A DNA stretch of 64,000 nt from Cryptosporangium phraense (GTDB lineage: Bacteria; Actinomycetota; Actinomycetes; Mycobacteriales; Cryptosporangiaceae), in the NCBI RefSeq assembly GCF_006912135.1, contig NZ_VIRS01000004.1, forward strand, positions 310,001 to 374,000, in the 5' to 3' direction. Under the pieces are notes generated by a model. It searched no databases, was not told the DNA's origin, and saw only the letters and a list, made by a program, of their open reading frames with translations. Below are positions 7,750 through 58,766 of this stretch, in pieces. Made by a program: the position numbers and the translations under genes. Position 1 is the stretch's first letter; each line of letters starts with the position of its first letter.

Positions 7750-9225
7750 GTGCCCGACGAGCTCCCCGCCGAGGTACGGGTCCTGGTCGTCGGCGCCGGC
7801 TGCGGAGGACTCGCGGTCGCCGCGCACCTCCGCGCGGCCGGCTACCGGTCCGCCGGCGATCTGCTGATCATCGAGAAAGCCGACGAGGTCGGCGGCACCT
7901 GGCGCGACAACACGTATCCGGAGTGCGCCTGCGACGTGCAGTCGGTGCTGTACTCGTTCTCGTTCGCGCCGAACCCGGACTGGCCGAACTCGTACGGACG
8001 GCAGCCGGACATCCTCCGGTACCTGATCCGGACGACGCGGGAGTCCGGGCTGATCGACCACATCCGGTTCGGCTGCGAGCTGGTCGACGCGGTCTGGGAC
8101 GGGACCCACTGGGTCGCGACGACGTCGCAGGGCACCGTGCGCGCGCAGGTGCTGGTCGCCGCGACCGGGGCGCTGTCGGCCCCGCGCCTGCCCGACCTGC
8201 CGGGGATCGGGACGTTCGCCGGCCAGGCGTTCCACTCGGCGCGCTGGGACCACTCGGTGCCGCTGGCCGGCCGGCGGGTCGGCGTCGTCGGCACCGGCGC
8301 GTCGGCGGTGCAGTTCGTGCCCGCGATCGCGCCCGAGGTCGGTCGCCTGACCGTGTTCCAGCGGACGCCCGGCTGGGTGTTGCCCCGGGGCGACCGGCCG
8401 TACGTCGCCGGGGAGCGGGCGCTGTACCGGCGCTGGCCGATCACCCAGAAGATCTCCCGCGGGACGACGTACGTGTACCGGGAGAGCATGGTCGTCGGCA
8501 TGGCCCACGTGCCCCGGGCGTTACCGGCGTTCCAGCTGGTCGCCGAGACGCACCTCAAGCGTCAGGTGCGCGATCCCGAGCTGCGCGAGAAACTGCGGCC
8601 GCCGTTCCAGATCGGCTGCAAGCGCGCACTGCTCTCCGACGACTGGTTCCCGGCTCTGCAGCGGCCGAACGTCGAGCTGGTGACGGCGGCGGCGGCCGAG
8701 GTGACGCCGACCGGCGTCGTCGACGCGACCGGCCGCGGGCACGACCTCGACGTGCTGATCTTCGGTACCGGGTTCACGCCGACCGAGCCGCCGGTGGCGC
8801 GGCTGCTGACCGGCTCGGCCGGCCGGTCGCTGGCCGAGACCTGGGACGGCAGCCCGCGGGCGCACCTGGGCATCACCGTGCACGGGTTCCCGAACCTGTT
8901 CCTGATGTACGGCCCGAACACGAACCTCGGGCACAGCTCGATCATCTACATGCTCGAGTCGCAGGCCCGCTACGTCGTCGACGCGGTCCGGACGCTCGAC
9001 CGGGGGCGGCTGGCGTCGGTCGAGGTCCGCGCGGAGGTGGAGTCGGCCGGGGCCGACGCCATGCAGCGGCAGCTCGCCCACTCGGTCTGGAACACCGGTG
9101 GCTGCGCGAGCTGGTACCTCGACCGCAACGGCCGCAACAGCGTGATGTGGCCGACGTTCACCTGGCGGTACCGGCAGCGCACCCGCCGCTTCGACCTCGA
9201 CAGTTACCACCTGAAGGCGGTTTGA
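7750..9225 (+). CDS. Flavin-containing Baeyer-Villiger-type monooxygenase
   Basis: A 491-residue NAD(P)H- and FAD-dependent oxygenase expected to insert oxygen next to a ketone, giving an ester or lactone. The FAD Rossmann motif is VVGAGCGGLAVAAHL near residue 12. The Baeyer-Villiger fingerprint FxGxxxHxxxW is intact at F156, G158, H162 and W166. The NADPH Rossmann motif GVVGTGASAVQF follows, and LIFGTGF with the GPNTNLGHSS region completes the family pattern. The GTG start is supported by a strong GGAGG eight bases upstream. It is the first gene of a three-gene operon with a GMC oxidoreductase and an ADC-like protein. It is probably repressed through the operator at 7694-7713. The substrate is unknown; aliphatic, cyclic or terpenoid ketones are all possible. 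Confidence 0.92.
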   Translation: MPDELPAEVRVLVVGAGCGGLAVAAHLRAAGYRSAGDLLIIEKADEVGGTWRDNTYPECACDVQSVLYSFSFAPNPDWPNSYGRQPDILRYLIRTTRESGLIDHIRFGCELVDAVWDGTHWVATTSQGTVRAQVLVAATGALSAPRLPDLPGIGTFAGQAFHSARWDHSVPLAGRRVGVVGTGASAVQFVPAIAPEVGRLTVFQRTPGWVLPRGDRPYVAGERALYRRWPITQKISRGTTYVYRESMVVGMAHVPRALPAFQLVAETHLKRQVRDPELREKLRPPFQIGCKRALLSDDWFPALQRPNVELVTAAAAEVTPTGVVDATGRGHDLDVLIFGTGFTPTEPPVARLLTGSAGRSLAETWDGSPRAHLGITVHGFPNLFLMYGPNTNLGHSSIIYMLESQARYVVDAVRTLDRGRLASVEVRAEVESAGADAMQRQLAHSVWNTGGCASWYLDRNGRNSVMWPTFTWRYRQRTRRFDLDSYHLKAV

Positions 9226-10890: not shown

Positions 10891-11531
10891 GCCTGCGCGA
10901 GATCCCGAGCGTCCCCGAGTCGCTGCTGGCCGCCGACGTCGAGCTGCCCACCGCGTCGGCTCCGGCGCCGTGGCGGACGCGGATCGACGCCGCGTTCTGG
11001 TGGCACCGCGCCACCCCGGACGCGTCGTCGGTGTCGTTGCCGGGAAAGGTCGTCCCGGTGACGCTGGCGGCGTTCGTCCGGTACCTCGACACTCCGGTGG
11101 GGCCGTACCACGAGATCTTCGCCAGCCCGGTGCTGCTGCGGGAGTGGCCGGTGCCGCCGCTGCACATTCCGTTCATCGCGGTCGACTCGCTGGCGTCGGT
11201 GCACGGCGGCCGGGCCAACTGGGCGCTGCCGAAGACGCTGGCCACGTTCACCTGGGGCGGGTCGTCGATCGCCGCGGCCGGCGAGGGCTGGCAGGTCAGC
11301 GCTTCGGCCCGGGCGGCGACCCCGAAATTCCCGGTGGTGGGCGGGCTGCGGGTGGCGCAGCCGTCCGGCGGGACCCTGCGTCGCGCCTGGATCGGCCTGC
11401 ACGGCCGCGCGCGCCTGGGCCGGGTGACCGTGACCGCGACCGGCCCGACGCTGGCCCGCTGGCTCGCGCCGGGGCGTCATCCGGCGCTGCTCATCTCCGA
11501 CTCCACGATGACGGTCGGCGCACCGCGCTGA
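10887..11531 (+). CDS. Acetoacetate decarboxylase-like (ADC superfamily) protein
   Basis: A 214-residue ADC-superfamily protein. The segment GGRANWALPKTLATF contains Lys116, which aligns by context with the Schiff-base lysine of acetoacetate decarboxylase. The preceding YHEIFASPVLL and WPVPPLHIPFIAVDS blocks are typical of the fold. It may decarboxylate, hydrate or hydrolyse a beta-keto product of the operon; ADC-like proteins are functionally diverse, so the reaction is open. The GTG start is embedded in the stop of the GMC gene (GTGA). The operon ends 12 bases before a strong hairpin terminator shared with the convergent fadB gene. Confidence 0.8.
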   Translation: MSLREIPSVPESLLAADVELPTASAPAPWRTRIDAAFWWHRATPDASSVSLPGKVVPVTLAAFVRYLDTPVGPYHEIFASPVLLREWPVPPLHIPFIAVDSLASVHGGRANWALPKTLATFTWGGSSIAAAGEGWQVSASARAATPKFPVVGGLRVAQPSGGTLRRAWIGLHGRARLGRVTVTATGPTLARWLAPGRHPALLISDSTMTVGAPR

Positions 11532-11542
11532 CCCGGCCGTGG

Positions 11543-11570
11543 GCCGTGGAGGGCGGGCGCCCTCCACGGC
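11543..11570. terminator. Bidirectional terminator hairpin between convergent operons
   Basis: A perfect 12-bp stem, GCCGTGGAGGGC at 11543-11554 and its complement at 11559-11570, encloses a GGGC loop and is followed by CGTTTCT. It lies between the ADC-like gene (plus) and fadB (minus), whose stop codons are 46 bases apart. Confidence 0.8.
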
Positions 11571-11576
11571 CGTTTC

Positions 11577-13712
11577 TCACGCCAGTGCGGCCCGCAGGCT
11601 GCCCGCCGCCACGGCCCGGTCGCGCAGCAGCGCGGGCGGACGGAAACGCTCGCCGAACTTGTCGGCCAGCTCGTCGGCCCGAGCCACGAACGCCTCGACC
11701 CCGTACTGGTCGACGAACTGAGCAACGCCGCCGAGCCCGGGCGGGAAGCCGATGCCCATGATCGAGCCGATGTTGGCGTCCTCGACCGAGCTCAGCACGC
11801 CTTCTTCGAAGCAGCGCGCGGTCTCCACCGCCATGATGAACAGCAGCCGGTCCTTGGCGTCCTGGAACCGGACACCGGGCCCGCTGCCGGGGGCCAGCCC
11901 GTCCATGTTCGGCGGGAACACCTCGGCCAGGCCGGGCCAGACCTGCTTGGCCGGCTCCCAGTCGAAGAAGCCCTTACCGGCCGCCTTACCCGTGCGTCCG
12001 TGCTCGTTCACCAGGGTTCGGAGGACGGCCAGCCCCGGGTGCTCGGCGGCGGCTCCGCCCTGCTCCTCGATCTTCAGCGGCAACGTCAGCGTCACCTCGT
12101 CGAGCAGCGTCAGCGGGCCGGCCGGGAAGCCGGACTGCAGCGCGGCCCGCTCGATGCTCATCGCCGGCAGGCCCTCGGCCAGCAGCGCCGCGCCCTCCAT
12201 GACCATCGTCCCGAACACCCGGCTGGTGAAGAACCCGCGGCTGTCCTTGACGACGATCGGCGTCTTCCCGATCGCCCGCGTGTAGTCGTAGGCCTTGGCC
12301 ACGGCCTCGGGGGACGTGTTCGCGCCGACGATCAGCTCGATCAGCGGCATCTTGTCGACCGGCGAGAAGAAGTGCACGCCGACCAGATCGGGCAGGCCCG
12401 CGCCCTCCTGCAGCTCGGTGATCGGCAGCGTCGAGGTGTTCGACGTGATCAGCGCGTCCGGGGCGGCCGCGGCCGCCTCGGCCAGCACGCGGTGCTTGAC
12501 CGCGACGTCCTCGAACACCGCCTCGATGACGAAGTCGCAGCCGGCGAGGTCGGCGTAGTCGTCGGTCGGCTGGATCCGGGCCAGGAGCGCCTGGTTCTTC
12601 TCCGGGGTGCCGCGCCGCTTCTCGAGGATCTTCTGCGAGTACGCCTTGCCCTTCTCCGCGGCCTCGGCCGACACGTCCTTCAGGACGACGTCGATGCCGG
12701 CCTTCGCGGTGACGTAGGCGATCCCGGCGCCCATCATCCCGGCCCCGATCACCCCGACCTTGGTCGGCGCGAACGACGGAACACCGTCCGGGCGGCTGCC
12801 ACCGCCGTTGATCCGGTTCAGGTCGAACCAGAACGCCTGGATCATGTTCGTCGAGATCGGGCCGGTCGCCAGGTCGGCGAAGTACCGGCCCTCGATCACG
12901 AACGCGGTGTCGACGTCGACCAGCAGGCCCTCGACCGCGGCGCAGAGGATGTGGTGCGGGGCCGGCAGGTTCGCGCCCTTGAGTTGCTTGTGGAGGTTCG
13001 CGGGCAGCGCGGGCAGCAGCCCGGCCAGCGACGGCGAGGTCGGCAGGCCACCGGGCACCTTGTAGCCCTTGGTGTCGTAGGGCTGGGCCGCCGTCGGGTT
13101 CGCCGCGATCCAGGATCGCGCCGAAGCCAGCAGCTCCTCCGGGGTGCTCACGACCTCGTGCACCAGCCCGAGGTCCTTGGCCGCCGGTGCACGCAGCTGC
13201 TGACCCTGCAGCAGGAGCTGAAGCAGCGCGTTGAACAGCCCGAGCAGCCGCACCGATCGCACGACCCCGCCCGCGCCGGGCAGCAGGCCGAGCGTCACCT
13301 CCGGGAAGCCGAGCTTCGTCGCCGGGGTGTCGAGCACGACCCGGTAGTGCGCAGCCAGTGCGATCTCCAGCCCACCGCCGAGCGCGGCCCCGTTGATCGC
13401 CGCCACCACCGGCACGCCGAGCGTCTCGATCGTGCGCAGCCGGCGCTTGATGTCGGTGACCGTCGCCAACAGGTCGGCCCGGTTCTCCGGACGGGCCCGG
13501 ATCAGCTCGTCGAGGTCACCGCCGGCGAAGAACGTCTTCTTCGCGCTCGTGATGATGACGCCCTTCACCGTGTCCTTCTCGGCGACCAGCCGGTCGACGG
13601 TCTCGCCGAACGCGGCCTGGAACGCCGCGTCCATCGTGTTCGCCGACGAGCTCGGCTTGTCCAGCGTCAACGTGACGACGCCGTCCTCGTCGCGGTCCCA
13701 ACGGATGCTCAC
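11577..13712 (-). CDS. fadB: Fatty acid beta-oxidation multifunctional protein, FadB type
   Basis: A 711-residue fusion of enoyl-CoA hydratase and 3-hydroxyacyl-CoA dehydrogenase, the middle two steps of beta-oxidation. The N-terminal crotonase domain shows [21 protein letters not shown] and [14 protein letters not shown]. The dehydrogenase domain begins [19 protein letters not shown] (NAD+ motif), followed by [24 protein letters not shown] (catalytic His) and [12 protein letters not shown]. Length matches the actinobacterial FadB family. The GTG start overlaps the stop of the thiolase gene (GTGA). It is the last gene of the tetR-acyl-CoA dehydrogenase-thiolase-fadB operon, which gives a complete beta-oxidation round in one transcript. 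Confidence 0.95.
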
Positions 13713-14923
13713 AGCTTCTCCACCACCGTCGCGATTCCCATTCCGCCACCGACGCACAACGTCACCAGGCCGTACCGTTCGTCGCGCCGCTCCAGCTCGT
13801 CGACCATCGTGCCGAGCAGCATCGCGCCGGTCGCGCCGAGCGGGTGACCCATCGCGATCGCGCCGCCGTTGACGTTGACGATGTCCTCGGAGAACCCGGT
13901 GTCGGCCATGAACCGCAGCACGACGGCCGCGAACGCCTCGTTCATCTCGACCAGCGCGATGTCGTCGACGGTCAGCCCGGCCTTGGCCAGCGCCTTCTTC
14001 GACGCCGGAGCCGGGCCGGTGAGCATGATCAGCGGGTCGGCACCGGAGACCGCGGTCGACACGATCCGGGCCCGCGGGGTCAGCCCGTGGTTCCGGCCGG
14101 CCTCCTCGCTGCCGATCACCACCAGCGCGGCCCCGTCCACGATCCCGGACGAGTTGCCGGCCGTGTGCACGTGGTTGATGCTCTCGACCCAGTGGTAGCG
14201 GTCGAGCGCGACCGCGTCGAATCCGCCCTGGTCACCGATGCCGGCGAAGCTCGCGGGCAGCCCCGACAGCGATTCGACCGTCGTGTCCGGCCGGACGTGC
14301 TCGTCCTGGTCGAGGACGACGTCCCCGTTCAGGTCACGCACCGGCACGACCGAACGCGCGAAGTACCCGTTGGCCCAGGCCTTGGCCGCCCGGGCCTGCG
14401 AGCGGGCCGCGTAGGCGTCCACGTCGGTGCGCGACCAGCCGTGCAGCGTCGCGATCAGGTCGGCGCCGATGCCCTGGGGCACGAACCCGGTCTCGTACGC
14501 GGTCTCCGGGTCCTGGGCCCAGGCCCCGCCGTCCGAGCCCATCGCCACCCGGGACATCGCCTCGACCCCACCGGCGAACACCAGGTCTTCCCAGCCCGAG
14601 CGCACCTTCTGGGCGGCGATGTTGACCGCCTCCAGGCCGGACGCGCAGAACCGGTTGAGCTGGACGCCGGACACCGTGTCGGGCAGGCCGGCCGCGATCG
14701 CCGCGGTCTTGGCGATGTCACCGCCCTGCTCGCCGACCGGGCTCACCACGCCCAGCACGACGTCGTCGACGCCGCCCGGGTCGAGGTGCGGGTTGCGGGC
14801 CCTGACCTCGTCGATCAGGCCGGTTACCAGCGAGATCGGTTTCACCGAGTGCAGCGACCCGGTCTTCTTGCCGCGACCGCGCGGGGTGCGGATCGCGTCG
14901 TAGACGTAAGCCTCAGTGCTCAT
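13709..14923 (-). CDS. fadA: Acetyl-CoA acyltransferase (thiolase)
   Basis: A 404-residue thiolase that cleaves 3-ketoacyl-CoA with CoA. The nucleophile is C93 in [12 protein letters not shown], the His is in [15 protein letters not shown], and the second Cys is C390 in CVGGGMG. The N-terminal [20 protein letters not shown] is typical of the FadA/trifunctional-beta subfamily, not the biosynthetic acetoacetyl-CoA thiolases. AGGAGG precedes the ATG at ideal spacing. It is separated from the upstream dehydrogenase by only 13 bases and overlaps fadB downstream. Substrate chain length cannot be read from the sequence. Confidence 0.95.
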
Positions 14924-14936
14924 GGGACGCCTCCTG

Positions 14937-16088
14937 CTAGACGCCGAGCGATCGCCCGACGATCTCCTTCATGATTTCCGTGGTCCCGCCGTAGATCGTC
15001 GTGATCCGGGTATCCGTGTAAGCACGGGCGATCGGATATTCGCGCATGAAGCCGTAGCCGCCGTGCAGCTGCAGACACCGGTCGACGACCCGCTTCTGCA
15101 TCTCGGTCGTCCACCACTTGGCCATCGCCGCGTCGGTGACCGTGTACCGGCCCTCGTTGTGTTCCAGGATCGCCTTCTCGATGTACGTTTCGGCCAGCTC
15201 CAGTTCCGTCGCCATCTCGGCCAGGACGAACCGGTTGTGCTGGAAGCTGCCGACCGGACGTCCGAAGGCCCGTCGTTCCTTGGTGTATTGGAGCGTGCGG
15301 TCGAAGACCGCGCGGGCCCCGGCGACCGCGGCCACCGCGATCGAGAGCCGCTCCTGGGGCAGCATCGACATCAGGTGGAAGAACCCCTGGTTGAGCTGGC
15401 CGATCAGGTTGGTCTCGGGCACGCGGACGTCGTCGAAGAAGAGCTCGGCCGTGTCTTGGGCCTTCATGCCGATCTTGTCGAGGTTGCGGCCGCGTTCGAA
15501 GCCGGGCGTGCCCCGCTCGACCGCGATGAGGCTCAGGCCGTGGGCGGCCTTCGCGTCGGGGTCGGTGCGGGCGACGACGAGGACGAGGTCGGCGAGGATG
15601 CCGTTGGTGATGAACGTCTTCGAGCCGTTGAGCACGAAGTCGGTGCCGTCCCGCTTGGCGGTCGTGGCGATGCCCTGGAGGTCGGAGCCGGCGCCCGGCT
15701 CGGTCATCGCGATCGCGGTGATGATCGTGCCGTCGCAGAAGCCCGGTAACCAGCGCTGCTTCTGCTCGTCGGTGGTGAACTCGAGCAGGTACGGCGCGGT
15801 GACGTCGTTGTGCAGCGAGAACCCGACGCCGCTGGCGCCGACCGCGATCGTCTCCTCGGAGAGCACCGCGTTGTAGCGGAAGTCCTTGATGCCCCCGCCG
15901 CCGTACTGCTCGGGGACGTCGGTGCCGAGCAGGCCCTGGGCGCCGGCCGCGGTCCAGATGCGCCGGTCGACCTGACCCTCCTTCTCCCACTCGTCGTGGA
16001 ACGGGACGACCTCCTTGGCCAGGAACGTGCGGGCGATCGCTCGGAACGCCTCGTGGTCTTCGTCGTACAGGGTTCGTCGCATCGTCAC
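14937..16088 (-). CDS. Acyl-CoA dehydrogenase (LCAD/IVD-type active site)
   Basis: A 383-residue FAD enzyme for the first oxidation of beta-oxidation. FAD- and substrate-binding signatures are [15 protein letters not shown] and [17 protein letters not shown]. The catalytic glutamate is predicted at E246 ([10 protein letters not shown]), as in long-chain and isovaleryl-CoA dehydrogenases. The position used in medium-chain enzymes is Gly here (IYGGTTEIM). This suggests a long or branched acyl substrate. The GTG at 16088 overlaps the TGA of tetR (GTGA); an ATG two codons later is the alternative. It belongs to the tetR-controlled fad operon. Confidence 0.93.
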
Positions 16089-16678
16089 TCCCTCGAGGCC
16101 AGCATCGAAGCCCAGGCGTCCAAGGCCCGGGCCCGCTGGGTCGCGTTCCAGTCGGTGAGCAGGCCGCTGACCCCGCGGCCGAGGAGCAGGTCGAGCGTCA
16201 TCTGCTGGAGCAGCGGGTCGGGGGTGACGTACTCGCGGCAGAGCTCACGCAGGTCGGTGGCGAGCTTCGCCTCGACCGGGATCAGTACCTCGCGCAGCGC
16301 GGGATCGCTCCGGGCGGCGACCCAGAGCTCGACCGCGGCCGCGTAGAGCGGGCCCGAGAGCAGGTCGGCGAGCAGGTCGAGCGTGCGCCGGAGCTGGTTC
16401 TCGCCGGCCAGGCCGGCGAGCTGCTCCCGGACGACGGCCGCGCGCTGGTCGGCCAGGTGCCCGACCGCGGCCGCGACCAGCTTCTCCTTGGTGCCGTAGT
16501 GGTGCAGCTGGGCGCCGCGGCTGACGCCGGCCCGCTGGGCGACCGCGGTCGTCGTGGTGCCGGCGTAACCGGCGTCGACCAGGCAGGCGAGCGTGGCGTC
16601 GAGCAGCCTCTGCCGCGTAGCGGCGCTGCGATCGGCCTGCGTCCGGCGAGCCGGCTGGGTGTCGGTCGGCTGGGCCAC
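16085..16678 (-). CDS. TetR family repressor of the fad/BVMO regulon
   Basis: A 197-residue TetR-type repressor. The helix-turn-helix reads RLLDATLACLVDAGYAGTTT then VAQRAGVSRGAQLHHYGTKE. The C-terminal ligand domain is not conserved enough to name an inducer; acyl-CoA or a ketone pathway intermediate is likely. An ATG at 16705 opens the frame further, but it lies inside the palindromic operator with no ribosome-binding site. The GTG at 16678 is preferred. It has GGAG nine bases upstream, and a TTGACT-N17-GAGACT promoter would place the transcript start on or near it. It is the first gene of the operon with acyl-CoA dehydrogenase, thiolase and fadB, so it is autoregulated. The same operator occurs upstream of the monooxygenase gene. 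Confidence 0.9.
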   Translation of the reverse strand: MAQPTDTQPARRTQADRSAATRQRLLDATLACLVDAGYAGTTTTAVAQRAGVSRGAQLHHYGTKEKLVAAAVGHLADQRAAVVREQLAGLAGENQLRRTLDLLADLLSGPLYAAAVELWVAARSDPALREVLIPVEAKLATDLRELCREYVTPDPLLQQMTLDLLLGRGVSGLLTDWNATQRARALDAWASMLASRE

Positions 16679-16702
16679 AGGCTGAGTCTCCGTGCCGGAC
16701 CG

Positions 16703-16722
16703 CATACAGTCAAGACTGTATG
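16703..16722. promoter_or_regulatory. TetR-type operator, copy 1 (tetR-fad operon)
   Basis: CATACAGTCAAGACTGTATG is a perfect inverted repeat, two 9-bp arms around AA. On the minus strand it contains TTGACT. Seventeen bases further is GAGACT, and six bases after that is the GTG of tetR. The operator therefore covers a -35 element. A near copy (16/20) lies at 7694-7713. Confidence 0.8.
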
Positions 16723-16724
16723 TT

Positions 16725-17045
16725 TTATGCGGCCCGCTCCTCCAGGTAGCGCCCGAGCAGCGCGGCCGTCAGCACCGGAGCCATCGCCCGGAGATCGAGC
16801 AGGTCGAGTTCGGGCAGGCCGACCCGGCCGTGCCGCCGGTCGATGACGACATCGCGCAGAGCCGGCGACGGGTCGGGCTCGCGCCGGGCCGCGCGGGTGG
16901 CCAGTTCGACCAGCGCGACGGTCTCCGGCTCGACCGGGACCATCGTCCCCACCCCGGCGTACAGGCGGTGCAGGTCGCTGTCCGGGAGCGTCGGATTCCA
17001 GAGGCTCTCGAGCCGCGCGACGAGCGCCTGCGGGACGACGGTCAT
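16725..17045 (-). CDS. Hypothetical protein, coupled to the preceding small membrane protein
   Basis: A 106-residue soluble protein that I do not recognise. It is rich in Leu, Ala and charged residues, with VARLESLWNPTLPDSDLHRL and VALVELATRAARREPDPSPA, and is probably all-helical. The ATG lies in the stop codon of the upstream small membrane protein (ATGA), which strongly supports that both are real and made together. A membrane anchor with a soluble partner is a plausible reading. Its TAA is three bases before the tetR operator, so the pair could read through into the fad operon. Confidence 0.6.
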   Translation of the reverse strand: MTVVPQALVARLESLWNPTLPDSDLHRLYAGVGTMVPVEPETVALVELATRAARREPDPSPALRDVVIDRRHGRVGLPELDLLDLRAMAPVLTAALLGRYLEERAA

Positions 17046-17278
17046 CGGTCGTTCCGGCCGACGAGGGCCAGGCCGGTGGATACGGTCTGGCTGGCCGCGG
17101 ACAGGGCCGGGGACTCGGTCGGGAGCGTCGTCACTCCCCCGCTCACCGTGAGCGAGAACGTGGCCGCGGCGGCCAGGACCGCCGCCGCCACCGCCAGGCG
17201 CGGGCCACGGGCCCGGGCGCGGTGCCGTCCGAGGGCTCGGAGCGCCGGGGGAAGCAGGGGAGCAGCAACGGCGGTCAT
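17042..17278 (-). CDS. Small single-pass membrane or secreted hypothetical protein
   Basis: A 78-residue protein with a basic N-terminal region (RALGRHRARARGPR) followed by one hydrophobic helix (AVAAAVLAAAATFSLTVSG), then a Ser/Thr-rich outward-facing tail. It could be a signal-anchored or secreted peptide. AGAGGA is correctly spaced before the ATG. It overlaps the next gene by four bases. No family recognised. Confidence 0.6.
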   Translation of the reverse strand: MTAVAAPLLPPALRALGRHRARARGPRLAVAAAVLAAAATFSLTVSGGVTTLPTESPALSAASQTVSTGLALVGRNDR

Positions 17279-17380
17279 CGTTTCGTCCTCTCGTCCGCTG
17301 ATGCCTCCACGATCGGCGGCCGCCGTGAGGCCCGGCTGAACGCGAGCTGTGCGGCCGCCCTGAATCACCCTGCGTAATAC

Positions 17381-17408
17381 CGAAGGGCCCCCTCGCGGGG
17401 GCCCTTCG
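17381..17408 (-). terminator. Terminator hairpin after the ABC-2 operon
   Basis: A 12-bp perfect stem, CGAAGGGCCCCC at 17381-17392 and its complement at 17397-17408, with a TCGC loop. It lies 11 bases beyond the stop codon of the ABC-2 permease gene. No U tract, as is usual in high-GC actinomycetes. Confidence 0.75.
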
Positions 17409-17419
17409 GGAGGAGAGCG

Positions 17420-18196
17420 TCAGACGCGGGCGGTGTCCCGCTTGAAGAGCCGGGCGGCGCCGAGGCTGAACGCGACGGTCCAGGCGATCACGTTGACCAC
17501 CTCGGTCATCGTCACCGAGTCGCCGGTCAGCGGGCTCCGGGCGATCGTGCCGATCCCGTAGACCGGGGTCCACTTCGCGATCTCCTGGAACGCGTGCGGC
17601 AGGACCTCCAGCGGCACGAACAGCCCGCCGAACATCGCCAGGATGGCCAGGATCGGGCCGAGGAACTGCATCACGTTCTCGGCCGGAACCAGGTACCCGA
17701 TGAACAGGCCGAACGCGGCGAACACCAGCGAACCGATCCAGGCCGCCAGCCCGGCCAGCACCCAGACGTGCATCGGCATCCGCACGCCGGCGACCCCACC
17801 GACGACGAACTCGACGATCACCGCGGCCAGGCCCAGCGTCATCGCGCTCAGCACCTTGGTCGCGATGTAGGCCGAGGGCCTGAGCGGAGTCAGCCGCAGC
17901 TGGCGGCTCCAGCCCTGGGCCCGCTCCACCGCGACGCCCGCGCCACCGCTGGTGGTCGCGACCATCGCGCCGTAGACGGCCAGGCTGATCATGATGTAGC
18001 CGGCCACCGGCTGGCCGTTGTCGAGGTGCTGGCCCTTCTGCGGCAGGCCGAAGAGCAGGAAGAACGCGGCCGGCATGATCAGGATGAAGAACAGCGTCCG
18101 GCGGTTGCGGAGGATCCGGCGGATCTCCAGGCTCAGGTAGGTGAAGTTCAGGCCGCCCATCCGCGGCGTCCGGCGCTCGCCGACGTAGGTGGTCAT
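17420..18196 (-). CDS. ABC-2 type transporter permease
   Basis: A 258-residue permease with six predicted TM helices. The N-terminal soluble segment (TYLSLEIRRILRNRRTLFFILI) leads into the first helix. The central VERAQGWSRQLRLTPLRPSAYIATKVLSA and the later GGLFVPLEVLPHAFQEIAKWTPVYG are the hallmark of ABC-2 drug or lipid exporters of the DrrB/NodJ type. Its ATG overlaps the TGA of the ATPase gene (ATGA). With the ATPase and the TetR upstream it forms a compact tetR-ATPase-permease exporter operon. Such systems often confer resistance to hydrophobic antibiotics; the substrate is not known. Confidence 0.93.
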   Translation of the reverse strand: MTTYVGERRTPRMGGLNFTYLSLEIRRILRNRRTLFFILIMPAAFFLLFGLPQKGQHLDNGQPVAGYIMISLAVYGAMVATTSGGAGVAVERAQGWSRQLRLTPLRPSAYIATKVLSAMTLGLAAVIVEFVVGGVAGVRMPMHVWVLAGLAAWIGSLVFAAFGLFIGYLVPAENVMQFLGPILAILAMFGGLFVPLEVLPHAFQEIAKWTPVYGIGTIARSPLTGDSVTMTEVVNVIAWTVAFSLGAARLFKRDTARV

Positions 18197-19119
18197 CGGT
18201 CCGTCTCCTTGCTGTCCGTGGTGAGCGCGATGAACGCGTCTTCGAGGTTGCGCGAGGTGATCTCGAGGTCCCGGGCGGCCGTCGAGTTGAGCAGGTACCG
18301 GGCCACCGCGTCCGAGTCGGACGCGTGCACCAGCACCGAGTCGCCCCGCAGCTCGACCTGGTCGACGCCGGGGAGCGCGGCCAGCGTCGCCGGGTCGGCG
18401 CCGGGCAGCGTGGCCCGCACCGTCCGCCCCGACGCCAGGCCCTTGATCTCGGCCGACGTGCCGTCCGCGACCACGCGGCCCTGCCGGACCAGCACGATCC
18501 GGTCGGCGTAGGCGTCGGCCTCGTCCAGGTAGTGGGTGGCGAACATGATCGTCCGGCCGCGGCGGGCGTCCTCCCGGATCGCGCCCCAGAACTCGCGCCG
18601 GCCCTCGACGTCCATGCCGGTCGTCGGCTCGTCCAGGACCATCAGGTCGGGGTCGGGCAGGAGCGCCATCGCGAACCGGAGCCGCTGCTGCTGGCCGCCG
18701 GAGCACTTGCCGACGCGACGGTCGGCGATCTCGGCGATGCCGGCGCGGCGGAGCACCTCGTCGACCGGGCGGGTGCGGCCGAACAGCGAGGCGGTCATCC
18801 GGACCGTCTCCGCGACCGTGAGGTCCTTGAGCAGGCCGCCGCTCTGCATGACCGCGGCGATCCGGCCGTGGGCGACCGCGTCGGCCGGCTTCTCGCCGTA
18901 GACCTCGACGGTGCCCGCGGTCGGCTGGGCCAGGCCCAGCATCATGTCGACGGTCGTGGTCTTGCCGGCCCCGTTCGGCCCGAGGAACGCAACCACCTCA
19001 CCGGGCTCGATCGTGAGCGAGAGGTCGTCCACCGCGGTGACCGAGCCGAAGCGCTTGGTGAGACCGGTGAGCCGAACGGCGGCGGTGGTGGCCGTTGGCG
19101 TCAGCGTCGTGTTCTCCAT
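18193..19119 (-). CDS. ABC transporter ATP-binding protein, DrrA-like
   Basis: A 308-residue ATPase for the ABC-2 permease. Walker A is GPNGAGKTT, the signature is the variant KCSGGQQQRLRFA, Walker B is LMVLDEPTTGMD, and the switch His is in ATHYLDEAD. The C-terminal extension of about 80 residues (DUF4162-like) is usual in DrrA/CcmA-type exporters. The ATG at 19119 (MENTTL) is chosen because it fits family length; an upstream in-frame GTG would add eleven unsupported residues. It lies 49 bases after the TetR gene, in the same direction. Confidence 0.93.
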   Translation of the reverse strand: MENTTLTPTATTAAVRLTGLTKRFGSVTAVDDLSLTIEPGEVVAFLGPNGAGKTTTVDMMLGLAQPTAGTVEVYGEKPADAVAHGRIAAVMQSGGLLKDLTVAETVRMTASLFGRTRPVDEVLRRAGIAEIADRRVGKCSGGQQQRLRFAMALLPDPDLMVLDEPTTGMDVEGRREFWGAIREDARRGRTIMFATHYLDEADAYADRIVLVRQGRVVADGTSAEIKGLASGRTVRATLPGADPATLAALPGVDQVELRGDSVLVHASDSDAVARYLLNSTAARDLEITSRNLEDAFIALTTDSKETDR

Positions 19120-51001: not shown

Positions 51002-52025
<1,024 letters not shown>

Positions 52026-52201: not shown

Positions 52202-52648
52202 ATGTCGGCCACACCGGGCGCGGTCGCCGACGAGCTGAGCGTGCTGCTCGGTCGGCTACATCGGACACTTCGCCGGGCGTCCCGGAGCGACCTGCCGGAC
52301 GAGCCGCTCCCGTCCGCGCAGATGGAAGTGTTACGCGTCGTGCAGAACGCGCCCGGCATCGGGGTGAAGGCGGTCGCGGCCGCGCTGGGCACCGCGCCGA
52401 ACACCGTGAGCACGCTGGTCGGCGATCTCACCGCCAGCGGACACCTGGAGCGCCTGCCCGATCCGCAGAACCGCCGCGCGGTCCGGCTCACGCTGACGGC
52501 GTCGGCGACCGAGCTCGTCGACGGGTACACCGATCACCGGCGCCGGATCGCCGCGGCCGCCGCCGAGCAGCTCGGATCCGACGATCTCGAGGCGCTCGCG
52601 GCCGCCCTCCCGGCACTGAACCGCCTGCTGGTCTTACTGGGCGGCTAG
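52202..52648 (+). CDS. MarR family transcriptional regulator
   Basis: A 148-residue winged-helix regulator. PSAQMEVLRVVQNAPGIGVK, then VAAALGTAPNTVSTLVGDLT (recognition helix), and the wing LERLPDPQNRRAVRLTLTAS give the MarR pattern with the conserved D-x-R-R. AAGGAG precedes the ATG. No partner gene is attached, so the target is unknown. Its TAG stop lies inside the left arm of the foldback element at 52645-52828. Confidence 0.9.
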   Translation: MSATPGAVADELSVLLGRLHRTLRRASRSDLPDEPLPSAQMEVLRVVQNAPGIGVKAVAAALGTAPNTVSTLVGDLTASGHLERLPDPQNRRAVRLTLTASATELVDGYTDHRRRIAAAAAEQLGSDDLEALAAALPALNRLLVLLGG

Positions 52649-52828
52649 GCCCTGTCCTGCGAATCTCGCTCGCAGCGAGGCACCGCTCAGCCGTCGTCAG
52701 GCAAGGCGGAGGGATGTCCGGCTGTCGCTCATTTGGTGCAGCTGTTGTATCCGGACATCCCGACAACGCGGCCTGGCGGCGGCTGAGCGGAGCCGCAGCC
52801 GAGCACGGATTCGCAGGACAGGGCCTAG
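52645..52828. mobile_element. 184-bp foldback element (MITE-like), no transposase
   Basis: The outer arms, 52645-52665 and 52808-52828, are a perfect 21-bp inverted repeat bounded by CTAG. Further in, CCGCTCAGCCG (52683-52693) pairs with 52780-52790, and GGGATGTCCGG (52711-52721) pairs with 52751-52761, around a 29-base loop. The whole unit is therefore one imperfect palindrome. The CTAG ends supply the stop codon of marR on the left and of the large helicase gene on the right. A miniature inverted-repeat transposon fits best; a very large bidirectional terminator is the alternative. Confidence 0.65.
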
Positions 52829-55800
52829 GACCGTCGCAGCAGGACCGTGGGACTCTCCGGGTCCGGAGTGAAGCGGACCAGGCCGACCGGGCCGTAGGCC
52901 GGGTCGACGACCGGGACGTCCTGGCCCTGCTCGGCCGCGGACACGATCGCGGTCGCTTCCGCCGCGGTCAGCCAGCCCGCCGTCTCCGTGCTCGCCTCTT
53001 CCTGACGCATCAGCTCGACGTTGGCCCGGTTGCGTTGCGCCTCGATCGAGCCGTCCGGGTAGTAGCAGGCCCAGCCGACGATCTTGCCGCCCAGCTGCAC
53101 CGGGGTGTCCACTCCCGAGCGATAGGCCCGCAGGATCGCGCGGGCCTCGTCCGGGCGGATCGCGCCGACCTCCTGGTACGACACCTCGACCGCGGGTTCC
53201 GGTTCCGGCTCGGGCTCCTTGATCACCGGGAGCTGACGGGTCAGGTCGGTCGGTTCGTCCTTCTGTTCCTTCCACCAGCTGACCGGCGAACCGGCCGGCG
53301 AGACCTGGGCCGCGCCGTCCGGGGCCGGGGAGGTCGGGCGACGGGTGGGGAGCGCCGGGGGCGTCAGCGGGACGAGTACCGCGTCGGCGGTCTTGGCCAG
53401 GCCGGGGAGACGGATCGCCGGGTGGGACGGGTCGCGGCGGAGCAGTTCGTCGGGGGTCGGGATCGTGGGGGCGTCGACCATCGAGGGTTCGAGGTTCTGC
53501 ACCGCGGTGCGGAGTTCGTCGAGGCGGCCGGCGATGGCCGGTTCCGGCTCTTCGTCGTCGGCAGGTTCCGGGTCGGGCACGGTGATCATCGGGAGCAGGA
53601 CGGTGAGGTCGTTGTAGGGCGCGGGGGTCTCGGCCGGCCAGTCGTCGGCCCACTCGTCCGGGTCGTCGGAATCTTCCTCGGCCGCCGGGAGCGTGACCTC
53701 AGGGTCGGTGGCCTCGTCGGGGAGGTCGGGCCTGGCCTCGGCGACGACGAGGGGAGCCTCGTCCTCCGGCGCTTCATCGATCGGTTCCTCGGCCGGCGCC
53801 TCGTCGACCGGCGTCACCTCGGTCTCCGCCTCGTCGGCCGACCGGGCCGGCTGCGCCTCGCGGTCCGGCTGCTCGTCGTAGGCCGGCTGCTCGTCATACG
53901 CAGGCTGGGTCTCGTCGGCCGGCCAGGCCGGCTGGGCGTCCTCGGCCGGCCAGGCCGGCTGGGCGTCCTCGGCCGGCCAGGCCGGCTGGGCGTCCTCGGC
54001 CGGCTCGGCCGGGTCGCGGGCCACCAGCCAGCGGGATTCCTCCGGCAGGAGGCCGAGGTCGTCCATCAGGGGCCAGAGGCCGGCCAGCGCGGCGTCCGGG
54101 TCGCGGGCGAACAGCGTGCCGCGCACCCGCCAGAACACGCACCCGCCGACCCGCTCCAGCACGGCCTGCCGACGCATCTCCTCGGCCCACCGGGCCGCAC
54201 CCCGGTACCGCCCGTGATCGCACTCGATCGCCAGCCGGCGCCCGTCGTTCGTCGGCAGCACGAAGTCGACCCGGTGCCGCCCGATCGGGTACTGCACGGC
54301 CGGACGCACGCCCAGGTCGAGCAGCCGGCGCAGGACCGACCGCTCCAGTTCGGACTCGCACGCCGCGTACAGCGTCTCGTCCGGGATCGGCTCGGCCGCC
54401 ACGGCGGCCAGCCCGAGCTTCGGCGCCGCGCAGTACCGCAGCAGCGCGGCCCGGGCGTCGTCCGGATGGAGGTTCTCCGGGCCGACCGAGTGGAACACCC
54501 ACATCTGGTCCTTGGCCCGGCTCGCGGCGACGTTGACCCGGCGGTGGTGGTCGGCCCCGGTGAAGGCGGCTCGCGCTTCGTCGCGGTCGGACACGACCAG
54601 GCTGACGAACATCACGTCCCGCTCGGCGCCCTGGAACGTGTACGAGTCGCCGACCTTGAGCGCCCGCCGGGCCATCTCCTGCTCGCCCAGGTGACGCACG
54701 AGCTGCTCGTTGATGTACTGCGCCTGCCCGCTGCTGGCCAGCAGGCTGATCACGCCGAACGTCAGCCCGGCGTACTCGGGGTCGGCGGCCAGCCGGGAGA
54801 TCGTCGCGACCAGCGCGTCGGCCTCGGCCAGGTTGACCTCGCCGTACCGGTCGCGCTTCTCGCGCATGCCCGGCACCCGCACGACCCGCACCGGGTCGAG
54901 CTTGCCGCGGTCGGCCCGCAGCGGCTGGACCGTGCCGTCGTACCACTGCTCGCTGGAGAACGAGATGATCTCCGGCACGCACCGGAAGTGCTCGGTGAGC
55001 ATCAGCGGTTCCGGCGACCGGCGCACCGCGTGGTCGTACAGGCTCGTCGTCACGTCGAACAGCGGCCACGACGGCAGGTCACCCAGGTGGTCCTGCCCGA
55101 GCCGGGCCACCTCGTCGTGGGCCAGCCCGATCGCGTACGGCCCGATCTGCCGGTCGTCGCCGACGACGACGGCCCTGGTCCCCAGCGACAGCACCGGCAT
55201 CGACAGCAGCCCGCACTGGCTCGCCTCGTCGACGATCACCACGTCGAACGGCGTCGTCCCGCCGGTGAACTGCGCCACCGCCCGGTCGACCGACATGATC
55301 CAGACCGGTACCGCGGCCACCGCGTCCCGCATGTGCTGCTGCGCCAGCGCGGTCCAGCCGGCCGACCGGCGTCCGGATCCCTTTCCGACCTTGCGCAATG
55401 CGGACGCCCAGCCGGCCAGCGCGTCGCGGGCCTGATCGTCCATCCGGCCTGCCGCCGCCAGCCAGGCCGACCGGGTGGCCAGCTCGCCGACCAGTTCCCG
55501 GGCCCGCTCGCGCAGCGCGTCGGCCTGCCGCCCGAGCGCGCCGGTGTCTTCCGGCCCGATGACGAGCCGGAGCCAGGTGTCGGCGCGTCGCCAGTTCCAG
55601 GCCTGGTGGCTGGTCGCCGGGTCGGGCAGCCGGCCCTCGGCGGCGATCCGGCTGGCCCACAGCGGCGCCACGGTGGCCAGCGACGCGTGCAGCTCCTGCC
55701 AGCGCTGCATGGCCGGACCGGCGGCACGCAGCCGGTCGGCGTCCGCGAGCACGGCCTCCCAGAGGTCGTAGTCGCCGGTCGCCCAGGCCCGGTCGAGCTC

Positions 55801-58404
55801 GCGCCAGTGCGGCGACGCGTTGGCGTCCAGCAGCGCCTCGTCGAGCACCGCGCGGACCGCCCGGCCTTCGCGCTCGGCGTCGTCGCTGTCGAAGACCGCC
55901 ACCAGCTCGGCGACCCGCGTCGCCACCGTGGCCAGCGCGTTCGGGTCGGCCCAGTCGGCCTCGCCGGGGTTGCCGGCCCGCAGGTAGGGGGCCAGCCGGT
56001 CGCGCACGGTCGGCCAGTAGCGCAGCCCGATGTCGACGACGTCCCCGACCTCGCGCAGGTACCCGCCGATCACCTCGACCGTGCTGGGGTCGTCGGGCGC
56101 CTGCGGGCCGTCGAGCTCGGCGACGAAGTGGTTCCAGCGCTCGGTGAGGCGGTGGCGGGCCCAGTCCAGCCGCACGGTCGCGAGAGCGGCGTCCACGTCG
56201 TCGACCGTGCGCAGCGGAGCGCCGTCGACGCGGATCTCGTCCCGGACGGAGGCCAGCCGACGGTGGATCAGACGGCTGACCCCGCGCGCCTCCACCAGGC
56301 GTAGCCGCAGCATGTCGAGGTCGGTGCGGAGCTGACGCGGGTCGGCCCAGAGTTCGTCCGGGATCTGCACCGCGCGTCCGGCCAGGACGCTGCGCCAGCG
56401 GGCGGTCTCGGTGAGCATCTCGGTGCAGCCGGCGACCTCGGCCTGGCAGGTCTCACGCCAGGCCGGCGAGACCGCGAGCCGACCGGCGAGCCGCCACTGC
56501 CAGGGCTGGTAGGCCCGGGCCCGGTGGGCGATCCGCCAGATCTCGTCGGCCGTCCCGGCGATCGTCGGACGTCCGGCCGACCGCACCGCGTTGATGTCGA
56601 CGCCGAGCGACGCGAGCGAACCGACCCGCTGGCGCAGCGACTCGCTGTGCTCGTCGGCGCGGGCCAACCGGCTGCCGTCGGGAAGGGACTCCCGCTCCGG
56701 GAGCCGGCGCTGGGCGTCGCCCAGGTCCTCCGGCCGGTAGGTGTTCGTGAGCACGGTGAACTCGGCGAACTCAGCGTCGGTGAGCGGGAACGGCGCGGAC
56801 GGGTCGATCGTGTCGGCGACCAGCGCGAGCCGGGCCTCGTTGGCCCACAGCCACTCGGCCACCTCGACCGCGGTCGCCTCGGCGCCGTCGACCAGGAACG
56901 TGCTGCTCTCGCGGTCGGCGACCGTGCGCATCGCGTTGTACCTGCCGGCCAGGTCCTGCTCGGCGGTGTCGAGCGCGGCCCAGAGCTCGGCCAGGCTCTC
57001 GGCCGCGGCCTCCTGGTCGAGCGCGCCGGCCTCGGCCTGCAGCTGGCGGACCGCGGTCTCCAGCTGCCCCAGCTGCTTGGCGCTGGACCCCATCACGCTG
57101 ATCGCCAGCGGTTTCAGCGCCTGCGGGAGCTTGTCGCGCACCTCGGCCAGCGGTTCGTCGCGATGGGACACGACCAGCACCCGGCGGCCGTGCGCGACCA
57201 GGTGGCAGATCAGGTTCGCGATCGTGTGGGTCTTGCCGGTGCCGGGCGGGCCCTGCACCGCGACCATCCGCTGCCGGGCCAGCCGGCGCGCGATCGTCTC
57301 CTGCTCGAGGTTCGCGGGCAGCGGGAACAGCAGCCGCTCGCCGATCGACTGCCACTGCTCGGGCGGGTCGTCGGGCAGCACGAGCGTCGACGGGTCGTCG
57401 GCCAGCAGCGCGGCCAGCGACCCGGACGGGACGTGCCCGGCCGCGAGCGCGGCCCGGAAATCGCCCAGGAACCCGGCCAGCGCGGTCCGCCGGGGCCGGA
57501 GCATCAGCAGGCTGGTGTCGCGGATGTGCGGCTCGGCGAGTTGGGCGTCGTGGCGGACGACCCGCGGTGGCAGGCCGAGACGACGCAGCGCCGAGCGGTA
57601 GAACTCGGTGCGGGCGGCCTGCTCCCAGGGGTCGAGGCTCATCGCGCCGCCCGGGCCGGCCAGGTCGTGCAGGCGGGCGTCCGGTGCGTCGGGCAGCGCT
57701 TCGAACGCGTCGGTCTGCAGCCGGAGCTCGCCGGTCGGCGTCACGGTGAGCGCGCCGGAGTCGGGGTCGACGTCGATCGAGATCGGCGCGGCCAGCAGCG
57801 GGTCTTCGACGGTCAGGCCGCCGACCAGGCCGCGGAACAGGCCGAAGCCCCAGACCAGCTCGTGCGAGGCCTCCAGCCGCACGGCCGCCTGACGGAGCTC
57901 GACCAGCCGCGAATACGTGCCACGGACCGCGTCGGCCTCGGCCGCCTTGATCGACCAGGGTTGCCAGAGCCGGGCCAGCCACTCGTCGACGGCGGGCTCG
58001 ACGGCGTCCAGATCGAGGTCGGGGTCGCGCTCGGCCGCGATCTCGCGCCACCCCTCGCGGAGCGCGGGGCGGCGGCGGGGGTCGTCGACCGTGCCGTCGA
58101 GGAGCGAGCGGACGACGGCCGGCAGGTCCGGCGGACGCGGCCGCGGCGGACGACGGAGCTCGAGCCATCGCTCGGCCTCGGGCGCGGGTTCGGTCTCGGG
58201 GATCGGGTCACCGGCGAGCCAGCAGCCCGGTTTCCCGGCCGGAAGGGTCGCCTGCCACACGACCGACTCGGCCGCGTCGAGCGTTCGGGCCGGGCGGGCG
58301 GAGAGCGCTCGCACCGCCGATAGATAGTCGGCGAAGCGCGACACGCGACTACGTAATGCCTCGACCCGGTCGGTCGCCGCCGTCACTGGAAACACCGCCG
58401 TCAC
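52825..58404 (-). CDS. Giant SF1 helicase-nuclease (Hhe/DUF4011-like) with acidic repeat tail
   Basis: A 1859-residue protein. N-terminal 350 residues: DUF4011-like region. SF1 helicase: Walker A GPPGTGKTHTIANLI near residue 385, motif II DEASQCGLLSMPVLS near 1058, motif III GDDRQIGPYAIG, motif V/VI DSYTFQGAERDVMFVSLVVS and RRVNVAASRAKDQMWVF near 1250-1300. Vsr/DUF559-like endonuclease at about 1365-1450: HRVDFVLPTNDGRRLAIECD, FWRVRGTLFARD. Next come 9-residue repeats of AQPAWPAED, about 200 acidic residues and a C-terminal segment (WACYYPDGSIEAQRNRANVE). GTG 58404 is chosen because GAGAGG precedes it. The architecture resembles the Hhe anti-phage protein. A defence role is inferred. Confidence 0.85.
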   Translation of the reverse strand: MTAVFPVTAATDRVEALRSRVSRFADYLSAVRALSARPARTLDAAESVVWQATLPAGKPGCWLAGDPIPETEPAPEAERWLELRRPPRPRPPDLPAVVRSLLDGTVDDPRRRPALREGWREIAAERDPDLDLDAVEPAVDEWLARLWQPWSIKAAEADAVRGTYSRLVELRQAAVRLEASHELVWGFGLFRGLVGGLTVEDPLLAAPISIDVDPDSGALTVTPTGELRLQTDAFEALPDAPDARLHDLAGPGGAMSLDPWEQAARTEFYRSALRRLGLPPRVVRHDAQLAEPHIRDTSLLMLRPRRTALAGFLGDFRAALAAGHVPSGSLAALLADDPSTLVLPDDPPEQWQSIGERLLFPLPANLEQETIARRLARQRMVAVQGPPGTGKTHTIANLICHLVAHGRRVLVVSHRDEPLAEVRDKLPQALKPLAISVMGSSAKQLGQLETAVRQLQAEAGALDQEAAAESLAELWAALDTAEQDLAGRYNAMRTVADRESSTFLVDGAEATAVEVAEWLWANEARLALVADTIDPSAPFPLTDAEFAEFTVLTNTYRPEDLGDAQRRLPERESLPDGSRLARADEHSESLRQRVGSLASLGVDINAVRSAGRPTIAGTADEIWRIAHRARAYQPWQWRLAGRLAVSPAWRETCQAEVAGCTEMLTETARWRSVLAGRAVQIPDELWADPRQLRTDLDMLRLRLVEARGVSRLIHRRLASVRDEIRVDGAPLRTVDDVDAALATVRLDWARHRLTERWNHFVAELDGPQAPDDPSTVEVIGGYLREVGDVVDIGLRYWPTVRDRLAPYLRAGNPGEADWADPNALATVATRVAELVAVFDSDDAEREGRAVRAVLDEALLDANASPHWRELDRAWATGDYDLWEAVLADADRLRAAGPAMQRWQELHASLATVAPLWASRIAAEGRLPDPATSHQAWNWRRADTWLRLVIGPEDTGALGRQADALRERARELVGELATRSAWLAAAGRMDDQARDALAGWASALRKVGKGSGRRSAGWTALAQQHMRDAVAAVPVWIMSVDRAVAQFTGGTTPFDVVIVDEASQCGLLSMPVLSLGTRAVVVGDDRQIGPYAIGLAHDEVARLGQDHLGDLPSWPLFDVTTSLYDHAVRRSPEPLMLTEHFRCVPEIISFSSEQWYDGTVQPLRADRGKLDPVRVVRVPGMREKRDRYGEVNLAEADALVATISRLAADPEYAGLTFGVISLLASSGQAQYINEQLVRHLGEQEMARRALKVGDSYTFQGAERDVMFVSLVVSDRDEARAAFTGADHHRRVNVAASRAKDQMWVFHSVGPENLHPDDARAALLRYCAAPKLGLAAVAAEPIPDETLYAACESELERSVLRRLLDLGVRPAVQYPIGRHRVDFVLPTNDGRRLAIECDHGRYRGAARWAEEMRRQAVLERVGGCVFWRVRGTLFARDPDAALAGLWPLMDDLGLLPEESRWLVARDPAEPAEDAQPAWPAEDAQPAWPAEDAQPAWPADETQPAYDEQPAYDEQPDREAQPARSADEAETEVTPVDEAPAEEPIDEAPEDEAPLVVAEARPDLPDEATDPEVTLPAAEEDSDDPDEWADDWPAETPAPYNDLTVLLPMITVPDPEPADDEEPEPAIAGRLDELRTAVQNLEPSMVDAPTIPTPDELLRRDPSHPAIRLPGLAKTADAVLVPLTPPALPTRRPTSPAPDGAAQVSPAGSPVSWWKEQKDEPTDLTRQLPVIKEPEPEPEPAVEVSYQEVGAIRPDEARAILRAYRSGVDTPVQLGGKIVGWACYYPDGSIEAQRNRANVELMRQEEASTETAGWLTAAEATAIVSAAEQGQDVPVVDPAYGPVGLVRFTPDPESPTVLLRRS
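53914..53994 (-). repeat. 27-bp tandem repeat, three copies, in the helicase gene
   Basis: Three near-identical 27-base units at 53914-53940, 53941-53967 and 53968-53994 encode AQPAWPAED. The second and third units are identical, so copy number may vary between strains. Confidence 0.85.
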
Positions 58405-58766
58405 TAGCGCCTCTCGATCCCCCACCGGCCTTCGGCCGACCGTACCGGTGAACACCGCCCCGAGGGCAGGGGTCCAGCGACACCTCACCCGGCCGGATGA
58501 GGCACGGTAGACCACCTGACTACCCTGTGGCATCCGGTGACTACGAGCCGAGATCGCGCCCTTGCGACGAGCGAGAATTTACGTCACTCGACTCGCGGCC
58601 GCGTCGACGGCTCCACCCGACGCTCGAATCGCTCGATCATCGCGGTGAGAGCGGCGCGTGATTCGTCGCTCGATCCGGCGTGATCGCGTAGGTGGTGCGG
58701 CTCCGGTTGCCGGTACTTCAGACTGGAGCAACCCTGATGCTCCAGACTTGAGCGAGGGAGGGCTCG
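58405..58766. other. Divergent intergenic region (362 bp)
   Basis: No gene is supported; the open frames give low-complexity Arg/Ser products. It carries the divergent promoters of the giant helicase and MDMPI genes. An inverted repeat AGACTGGAGCAACCCTGATGCTCCAGACT-like unit lies at about 58720-58749, reading CAGACTGGAGCA then TGCTCCAGACTTG: the 9-base arms TGGAGCA and TGCTCCA flank ACCCTGA, close to the MDMPI start, and may be an operator or leader hairpin. Confidence 0.4.

What the first reader, a model, noticed from the sequence alone, without database searches (positions are those of the whole stretch)
52825..58404. Hhe-like helicase-nuclease with an extra acidic, repeat-bearing tail
Seen: DUF4011-like start, full SF1 helicase motifs, a Vsr/DUF559-like nuclease, then AQPAWPAED repeats, a long acidic stretch and a distinct C-terminal segment; 1859 residues. 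Known: Hhe (DUF4011-helicase-Vsr) is an experimentally found anti-phage gene. Inference: this is a variant defence gene whose roughly 400-residue tail may sense phage DNA or proteins or block activity until needed. It stands alone, next to a foldback element and a MarR gene, as expected for an acquired defence gene.
Basis: partly seen in the sequence, partly recalled or inferred. Interest (0 to 1): 0.72.

Follow-up and report, generated by a model that had tools for sequence, protein, structure and literature searches.

The report
Defence-type helicase with altered nuclease, swappable tail
This gene encodes a large DNA-motor protein of a family found beside anti-phage genes, but in this genus its DNA-cutting domain carries altered active-site residues and its end carries an exchangeable small domain that, in relatives, is also found on a neighbouring sigma-factor-like protein, which hints at how such defence proteins are steered to their target.

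Summary
The gene (52825-58404, minus strand, GTG start, 1859 aa) has intact SF1 (Upf1-like) helicase motifs and a Vsr/EDxHD-fold nuclease. It has no DUF4011. Its closest named families are ProA (NF058533) and PDC-S37, both matched only in part. It is not a lone acquired gene: all 4 sampled genomes of the genus carry it between the same neighbours. The foldback element is a later MITE (7 full copies in the genome), absent from the three sister species. In the genus-core copy the nuclease His and last Asp of the EDxHD motif are Arg and Glu in 4/4, whereas 42 relatives keep them in 37 and 41; yet the domain is under strong purifying selection. The tail splits into a fast-evolving acidic linker (the repeats lie here) and a conserved, internally duplicated ~115-residue domain. 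Across relatives the C-terminus is a swappable module: this domain, a DUF3320-like domain, a complete sigma-70 factor, or nothing. In two relatives a convergent sigma-region-4 protein beside Mza genes carries the same tail domain. Most likely: a defence-derived motor with a re-tuned or dead nuclease, steered by a tethered recruitment domain. Phage defence here is untested.

The parts
52825..58404 (-). Helicase-nuclease gene, GTG start, 1859 aa (an upstream ATG at 58533 would give 1902 aa; residue numbers below use the 1902-aa frame)
57334..58404 (-). N-terminal region (residues 44-400), shared with homologues, no Pfam match (not DUF4011)
   Evidence: dN/dS 0.12-0.20
57034..57333 (-). RecA1 of the SF1 motor, Walker A GPPGTGKT at residues 428-435
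   Evidence: AAA_11; motif conserved in all aligned sequences apart from T/S at the last position; dN/dS 0.01-0.09
55324..57033 (-). Long insertion between the two RecA halves (residues 501-1070)
54424..55323 (-). RecA2 of the SF1 motor with DEAS box and motifs III-VI
   Evidence: AAA_12 1.6e-17
54043..54366 (-). Vsr/EDxHD-fold nuclease (MTES_1575), residues 1390-1497; E1397, D1423, E1437, D1439 kept; G1440>H, H1444>R (54202-54204), D1452>E (54178-54180)
   Evidence: dN/dS 0.04-0.12
53179..54036 (-). Acidic/proline-rich variable linker (residues 1500-1785), holding the 27-bp / 9-residue repeats at 53903-54012
   Evidence: dN/dS 0.34-0.98; repeats; composition
52828..53178 (-). C-terminal duplicated domain (residues 1786-1902), two tandem halves
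   Evidence: alignment A1; halves alike, at most 2 of 1000 shuffles in 8 of 9 sequences; dN/dS 0.21-0.26
52645..52828 (.). MITE with 21-nt perfect inverted ends, inserted at a CTAG so that the marR and helicase genes both keep a TAG stop; not part of the system
58405..58585 (-). Conserved leader: ~75 nt before the start codon nearly invariant in the genus, and an invariant 22-nt block at 58564-58585

Best explanation
It is a genus-core member of the ProA/PDC-S37 type of large single-protein defence helicase-nucleases. Shown by sequence: an intact SF1 motor; a Vsr/EDxHD nuclease fold whose catalytic His and last Asp are replaced by Arg and Glu while the domain stays under strong selection; an acidic, poorly conserved linker (presumably disordered); a conserved duplicated C-terminal domain. 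Inferred: the C-terminal domain is a tethered recruitment or sensing module that docks the motor on a partner. In related genomes the probable partner is a sigma-region-4/alpha-CTD-like protein that carries the same domain, and in one relative a complete sigma-70 factor is fused in its place. The motor then translocates on or remodels the captured nucleic acid, and the nuclease fold binds it and cuts weakly, differently, or not at all. Role: innate defence, or a domesticated derivative of it.
For: Best named match is ProA (171.6 bits), then PDC-S37 (129.6 bits). Relatives of the sister clade lie beside MzaD/MzaE, a DUF3427-PLD type IV restriction enzyme, and DISARM drmA/drmB/vsr/drmD with GmrSD. 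Modular C-termini among closely related cores. The same tail domain occurs on an adjacent sigma-region-4 protein, E=1e-43 and 4e-37, and on no other kind of protein in 299 order or 396 phylum genomes. Helicase and partner family fused in one 2160-aa frame in G286, beside a NERD-kinase gene. Active-site replacements 4/4 against His in 37/42 and Asp in 41/42 of others. Selection profile: motor and nuclease strong, tail domain clear, linker weak.
Against: No phage challenge data. The genus-core locus is not in a defence island: its neighbours are glycosidase, Rpf, MarR, TIGR03083-like and helicase-like genes (names by eye). The sigma-like partner is absent from all four genomes of the genus at E<=1e-5, so whatever the tail docks here is unknown. 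Some Vsr-like enzymes may tolerate the replaced residues. The tail model is low confidence (pLDDT 58, single sequence).
Confidence: 0.5

Rival explanations
1. Domesticated housekeeping helicase: a genus-specific protein for repair or for clearing replication-transcription conflicts, with the nuclease kept as a DNA-binding pseudo-nuclease.
For: 4/4 syntenic in the genus, low dN/dS across motor and nuclease; no defence genes next to it; altered nuclease; nearly invariant leader.
Against: Patchy in the order (39 of 299). The nearest relatives sit beside known defence genes. No core-genome homologue outside the genus was seen.
Confidence: 0.3
2. Active single-gene restriction factor: motor loads on phage DNA, nuclease cuts, tail senses or inhibits.
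For: Motor intact; metal-binding E1397, D1423, E1437, D1439 kept; family similarity to ProA and Hhe models.
Against: His>Arg and Asp>Glu at catalytic positions in 4/4; a second lineage (L069) shows the same pair of changes and three more relatives (L016-L018) have lost His and Glu, so loss recurs.
Confidence: 0.15
3. Decaying relic of a defence gene.
For: Altered active site; MITE directly downstream.
Against: Open frame in all four species; dN/dS 0.04-0.12 in the nuclease and 0.01-0.09 in RecA1; the MITE leaves both stop codons intact.
Confidence: 0.03
4. The acidic tail is mainly an autoinhibitor (DNA mimic) that occupies the motor or nuclease until infection.
For: 25% D+E in the linker.
Against: Linker sequence and length are poorly conserved (dN/dS up to 0.98), and relatives without any tail exist with closely related cores.
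Confidence: 0.1

Closest known systems
ProA anti-phage protein (NCBIfam NF058533)
   Same: Motor with long insertion, Vsr-like nuclease; aligned residues 400-1594 to profile 643-1793 of 1903, 171.6 bits
   Different: Far below the 1500-bit cut-off; first ~640 profile positions unmatched; the DUF3320-like C-terminus that ProA-like relatives carry is replaced by the duplicated domain; nuclease residues altered
PDC-S37 (PADLOC candidate system)
   Same: 1076-1492 aligned to 918-1340 of 1550, 129.6 bits
   Different: Partial match; I found no paper that names this candidate system
Hhe (DUF4011-helicase-Vsr; NF042953, PDLC02194)
   Same: SF1 motor plus Vsr-like nuclease order
   Different: No DUF4011; 79.5 bits against the cut-off of 2000; 53.9 bits in PADLOC
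Mokosh (MkoA / MkoC)
   Same: Upf1-like SF1 motor, RecA2 region at 116-128 bits
   Different: Only the motor aligns; Mokosh carries a PLD nuclease (own knowledge), this a Vsr/EDxHD fold
Vsr and I-Bth0305I EDxHD nucleases
   Same: Fold of the nuclease domain, Z 9.8 and 12.1; E and D of EDxHD kept
   Different: H>R and last D>E; the domain is part of a motor protein

Membership tests
Hhe | DUF4011 domain at the N-terminus | tested here: not met
   no PF13195 match at E<=1 in the protein, no Pfam match at E<=10 in the N-terminal part, none in the genome
Hhe | NCBIfam equivalog cut-off of 2000 bits | tested here: not met
   79.5 bits
Hhe | SF1 helicase motifs | tested here: met
Hhe | Vsr-like nuclease after the motor | tested here: met
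   fold met; catalytic set incomplete
ProA (NF058533) | equivalog cut-off of 1500 bits over the full length | tested here: not met
   171.6 bits, profile 643-1793 of 1903
ProA (NF058533) | C-terminal DUF3320-like region (profile end) | tested here: not met
   match stops at residue 1594; relative L009 aligns to profile position 1903 with a DUF3320-like end (weak)
PDC-S37 | match to the PADLOC model | tested here: inconclusive
   129.6 bits over 918-1340 of 1550, no cut-off available
Vsr/EDxHD nucleases | fold | tested here: met
   AlphaFold model pLDDT 89; 1cw0 Z 9.8, 3r3p Z 12.1
Vsr/EDxHD nucleases | catalytic E, D, H, D | tested here: not met
   E1397 and D1423 kept; H1444 is R, D1452 is E in 4/4
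Anti-phage defence systems | protects against phage | not testable with these tools
   needs phage challenge
Mokosh | PLD-family nuclease partner or domain | tested here: inconclusive
   nuclease domain matches MTES_1575 and no PLD family is among the Pfam matches shown; a separate PLD partner elsewhere in the genome was not sought

The most novel reading that the evidence does not exclude
The C-terminal module is a recruitment tag that links defence helicase-nucleases to transcription-initiation-like proteins. The same duplicated domain sits on the helicase and on an adjacent protein with sigma-70 region 4, an alpha-CTD-like and a HARE-HTH segment; in one relative a full sigma-70 factor replaces it. 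These proteins would then watch RNA polymerase or promoter DNA for phage takeover, and in this genus the nuclease has become a clamp rather than a cutter.
Probability: 0.2. Interest if true: 0.78.

Novelty: new variant of a known kind. Interest (0 to 1): 0.5.

Why it matters
If right, a widespread class of single-protein defence motors chooses its target through an exchangeable C-terminal domain, and the sigma-factor fusion and the shared domain name the likely target (the transcription machinery). That would make the open question of how such proteins tell phage from self directly testable by domain swaps. It would also give a case in which a defence nuclease has been re-tuned and fixed in a genus core genome.

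Tried and rejected
Hhe membership (no DUF4011). Recent acquisition (synteny in 4/4). MITE as a mobility signal or gene-truncating element (both stops kept; copies genome-wide). Relic (dN/dS). Tail domain in viruses: viral-contig scan with A1 found no relative. Whole protein in phage records: only the RecA2 part matched, in 4 records. A second own-genome copy of the tail: only a chance hit, E 0.29. MITE in plasmids: no match. Sigma-like partner in this genus: none. Full-length genome search failed twice, so residues 1067-1519 were used. Literature searches found no paper describing ProA as an anti-phage protein, PDC-S37 or Hhe by name; PMC10250203 uses a DUF4011 gene only as a conserved flank of a defence hotspot.

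Full report
Observation. The frame runs from 58533 (ATG) or, better, 58404 (GTG) down to the TAG at 52825. Residue numbers here follow the 1902-aa frame (P0001).

Domains. Pfam finds AAA_11 and AAA_12 (SF1, Upf1-like) and MTES_1575 (63 bits, cut-off 38), and no DUF4011; the N-terminal part gives nothing even at E=10 and the genome holds no DUF4011. All SF1 motifs are intact. PADLOC ranks PDC-S37 (129.6 bits) and MkoC first, Hhe far below. NCBIfam ranks ProA (171.6 bits, cut-off 1500) above Hhe (79.5 bits, cut-off 2000). So it belongs to the superfamily but is neither ProA nor Hhe by their own cut-offs.

Nuclease. The AlphaFold model of residues 1380-1502 on 21 sequences (pLDDT 89) matches I-Bth0305I (Z 12.1), NGO0050 (Z 11.4) and Vsr (Z 9.8 and 9.2). 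That is the EDxHD/Vsr fold (EDxHD as a named homing-endonuclease family: PMC3943268). By motif, [WY]HG here corresponds to Vsr FWHG and the Asp of D..RQ..L to the last D; the mapping of His to Vsr H69 is from my knowledge, not from a printed structural alignment. In 42 relatives the four positions are E 42, D 41, H 37, D 41; in the four genus-core sequences they are E, D, R, E, and the Gly after ECD is His. The paralogue in G001 keeps H and D (L040). L069, in another clade, shows the same H>R and D>E pair independently, and L016-L018 lost His and the Glu before CD, so the active site is lost or altered more than once. Yet within the genus the domain has dN/dS 0.04-0.12, as low as the motor (Nei-Gojobori, pairwise). 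That argues for a changed but useful domain, not decay.

Tail. After the nuclease comes a linker of about 286 residues, 25% acidic and 18% Pro, dN/dS 0.34-0.98. The 27-bp repeat lies here, and the sister proteins shown do not carry this 9-residue repeat in their tails. The last ~115 residues are different: alignable in all four species, in the paralogue and in four genomes of another family (alignment A1), dN/dS 0.21-0.26, and made of two tandem halves (0-2 of 1000 shuffles reach the score in 8 of 9 sequences; L038 alone is not significant).

Swappable C-terminus. Relatives with the same core end differently: the duplicated domain followed by a further LWE-type segment (L060, L061, L062, L064), a DUF3320-like domain (L001-L014, L019-L021 and others; pattern match, and a weak Pfam match in L009), a complete sigma-70 factor with regions 1.2, 2, 3 and 4 (L063, one 2180-aa frame; region 1.2 is below its cut-off), or nothing (L041, L059). 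In the tree L041, L059, L060-L064 are close (end branches 0.025-0.066), so the ends were exchanged recently; the genus-core copies and the paralogue form their sister clade with full support (quick method).

Partner. A search with the domain finds it in only 8 of 299 order genomes and in none but the window's own among 396 phylum genomes. Besides helicases, it occurs only on a protein (frames of 969 and 931 aa) convergent to the helicase in G244 and G083 (E 1e-43 and 4e-37). That protein has sigma-70 region 4, a weak RNA polymerase alpha-CTD match, and a weak HARE-HTH match. Next to it lie MzaE (AIPR) in both and MzaD (DUF4420) in G083. Its family occurs in 18 of 299 genomes; in G286 it is fused to the helicase in one 2160-aa frame beside a NERD-kinase gene, and elsewhere it lies near genes that look like DndBCD or PLD/SMC genes (by eye). 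It is absent from all four genomes of the window's genus.

Context. L063 overlaps drmA and lies beside drmB, vsr, drmD, GmrSD and part of a type IV enzyme; L061 is beside a DUF3427-PLD type IV enzyme, and by eye L064 and L059 have the same gene. So the sister clade lives in defence islands. The window's locus does not: the same glycosidase, Rpf, MarR and TIGR03083-like genes flank it in 4 of 4 genomes (gene names by eye). At order level the family is patchy, 39 of 299 at E<=1e-60.

Foldback element. 52645-52828 has perfect 21-nt ends, six further full copies at 87-91% in the genome, and is missing from the three sisters. It sits in a CTAG shared by the two convergent stop codons, and after insertion both genes still end in TAG (sequence).

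Mechanism, step by step. Shown by sequence: motor intact; nuclease fold with altered catalytic residues under selection; tethered conserved domain; module exchange; shared domain with a sigma-like protein in relatives. Inferred: the domain recruits the motor, the target is connected with transcription, and the protein acts in defence or descends from such a protein. Not shown: any activity, any phage effect, any partner in this genus.

Organism names. Genome sizes suggest Cryptosporangium for the window's genus and Nocardia for the sister clade; this is inference and nothing rests on it.

Noticed in passing
L063:6426-12923 (+), genome G279: Helicase-nuclease fused in frame to a complete sigma-70 factor (regions 1.2, 2, 3, 4), the stop overlapping the start of drmA in a DISARM locus. 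Possible transcription-linked defence.
   Followed up: partly
L062:12718-15444 (-), L060:12059-14839 (-): Protein with sigma-70 region 4, alpha-CTD-like and HARE-HTH segments, carrying the same duplicated tail domain as the convergent helicase, next to MzaE (and MzaD in L060).
   Followed up: partly
L111, L112, L113 (about 8400-18300): Relatives of the sigma-like protein without the tail, near genes that look like DndB/C/D or PLD/SMC-type restriction genes (read by eye).
   Followed up: no
window 52645-52828: MITE family, 7 full copies in this genome, inserted at CTAG between convergent genes so that both keep a TAG stop.
   Followed up: yes
window 58586-58720: Remnant of a PadR-type regulator gene that is intact (218 aa) in sister species L037 and L039 directly upstream of the helicase gene; here most of it is deleted.
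   Followed up: partly
window 58405-58585: Leader of the helicase gene: the last ~75 nt and a 22-nt block (58564-58585) are nearly invariant in four species although synonymous divergence is about 0.3-0.7.
   Followed up: partly
window 51032-51178: c-di-AMP riboswitch (RF00379, 65.5 bits) in front of an Rpf-like gene at 51180-52025.
   Followed up: no
G001:C11:134311-135630 (L040): Second, divergent copy (52% identity) with canonical nuclease residues and the same tail domain, in a different genomic place.
   Followed up: partly
L069 (G086): Independent H>R and D>E replacement in the nuclease of another lineage, the same pair as in this genus.
   Followed up: no
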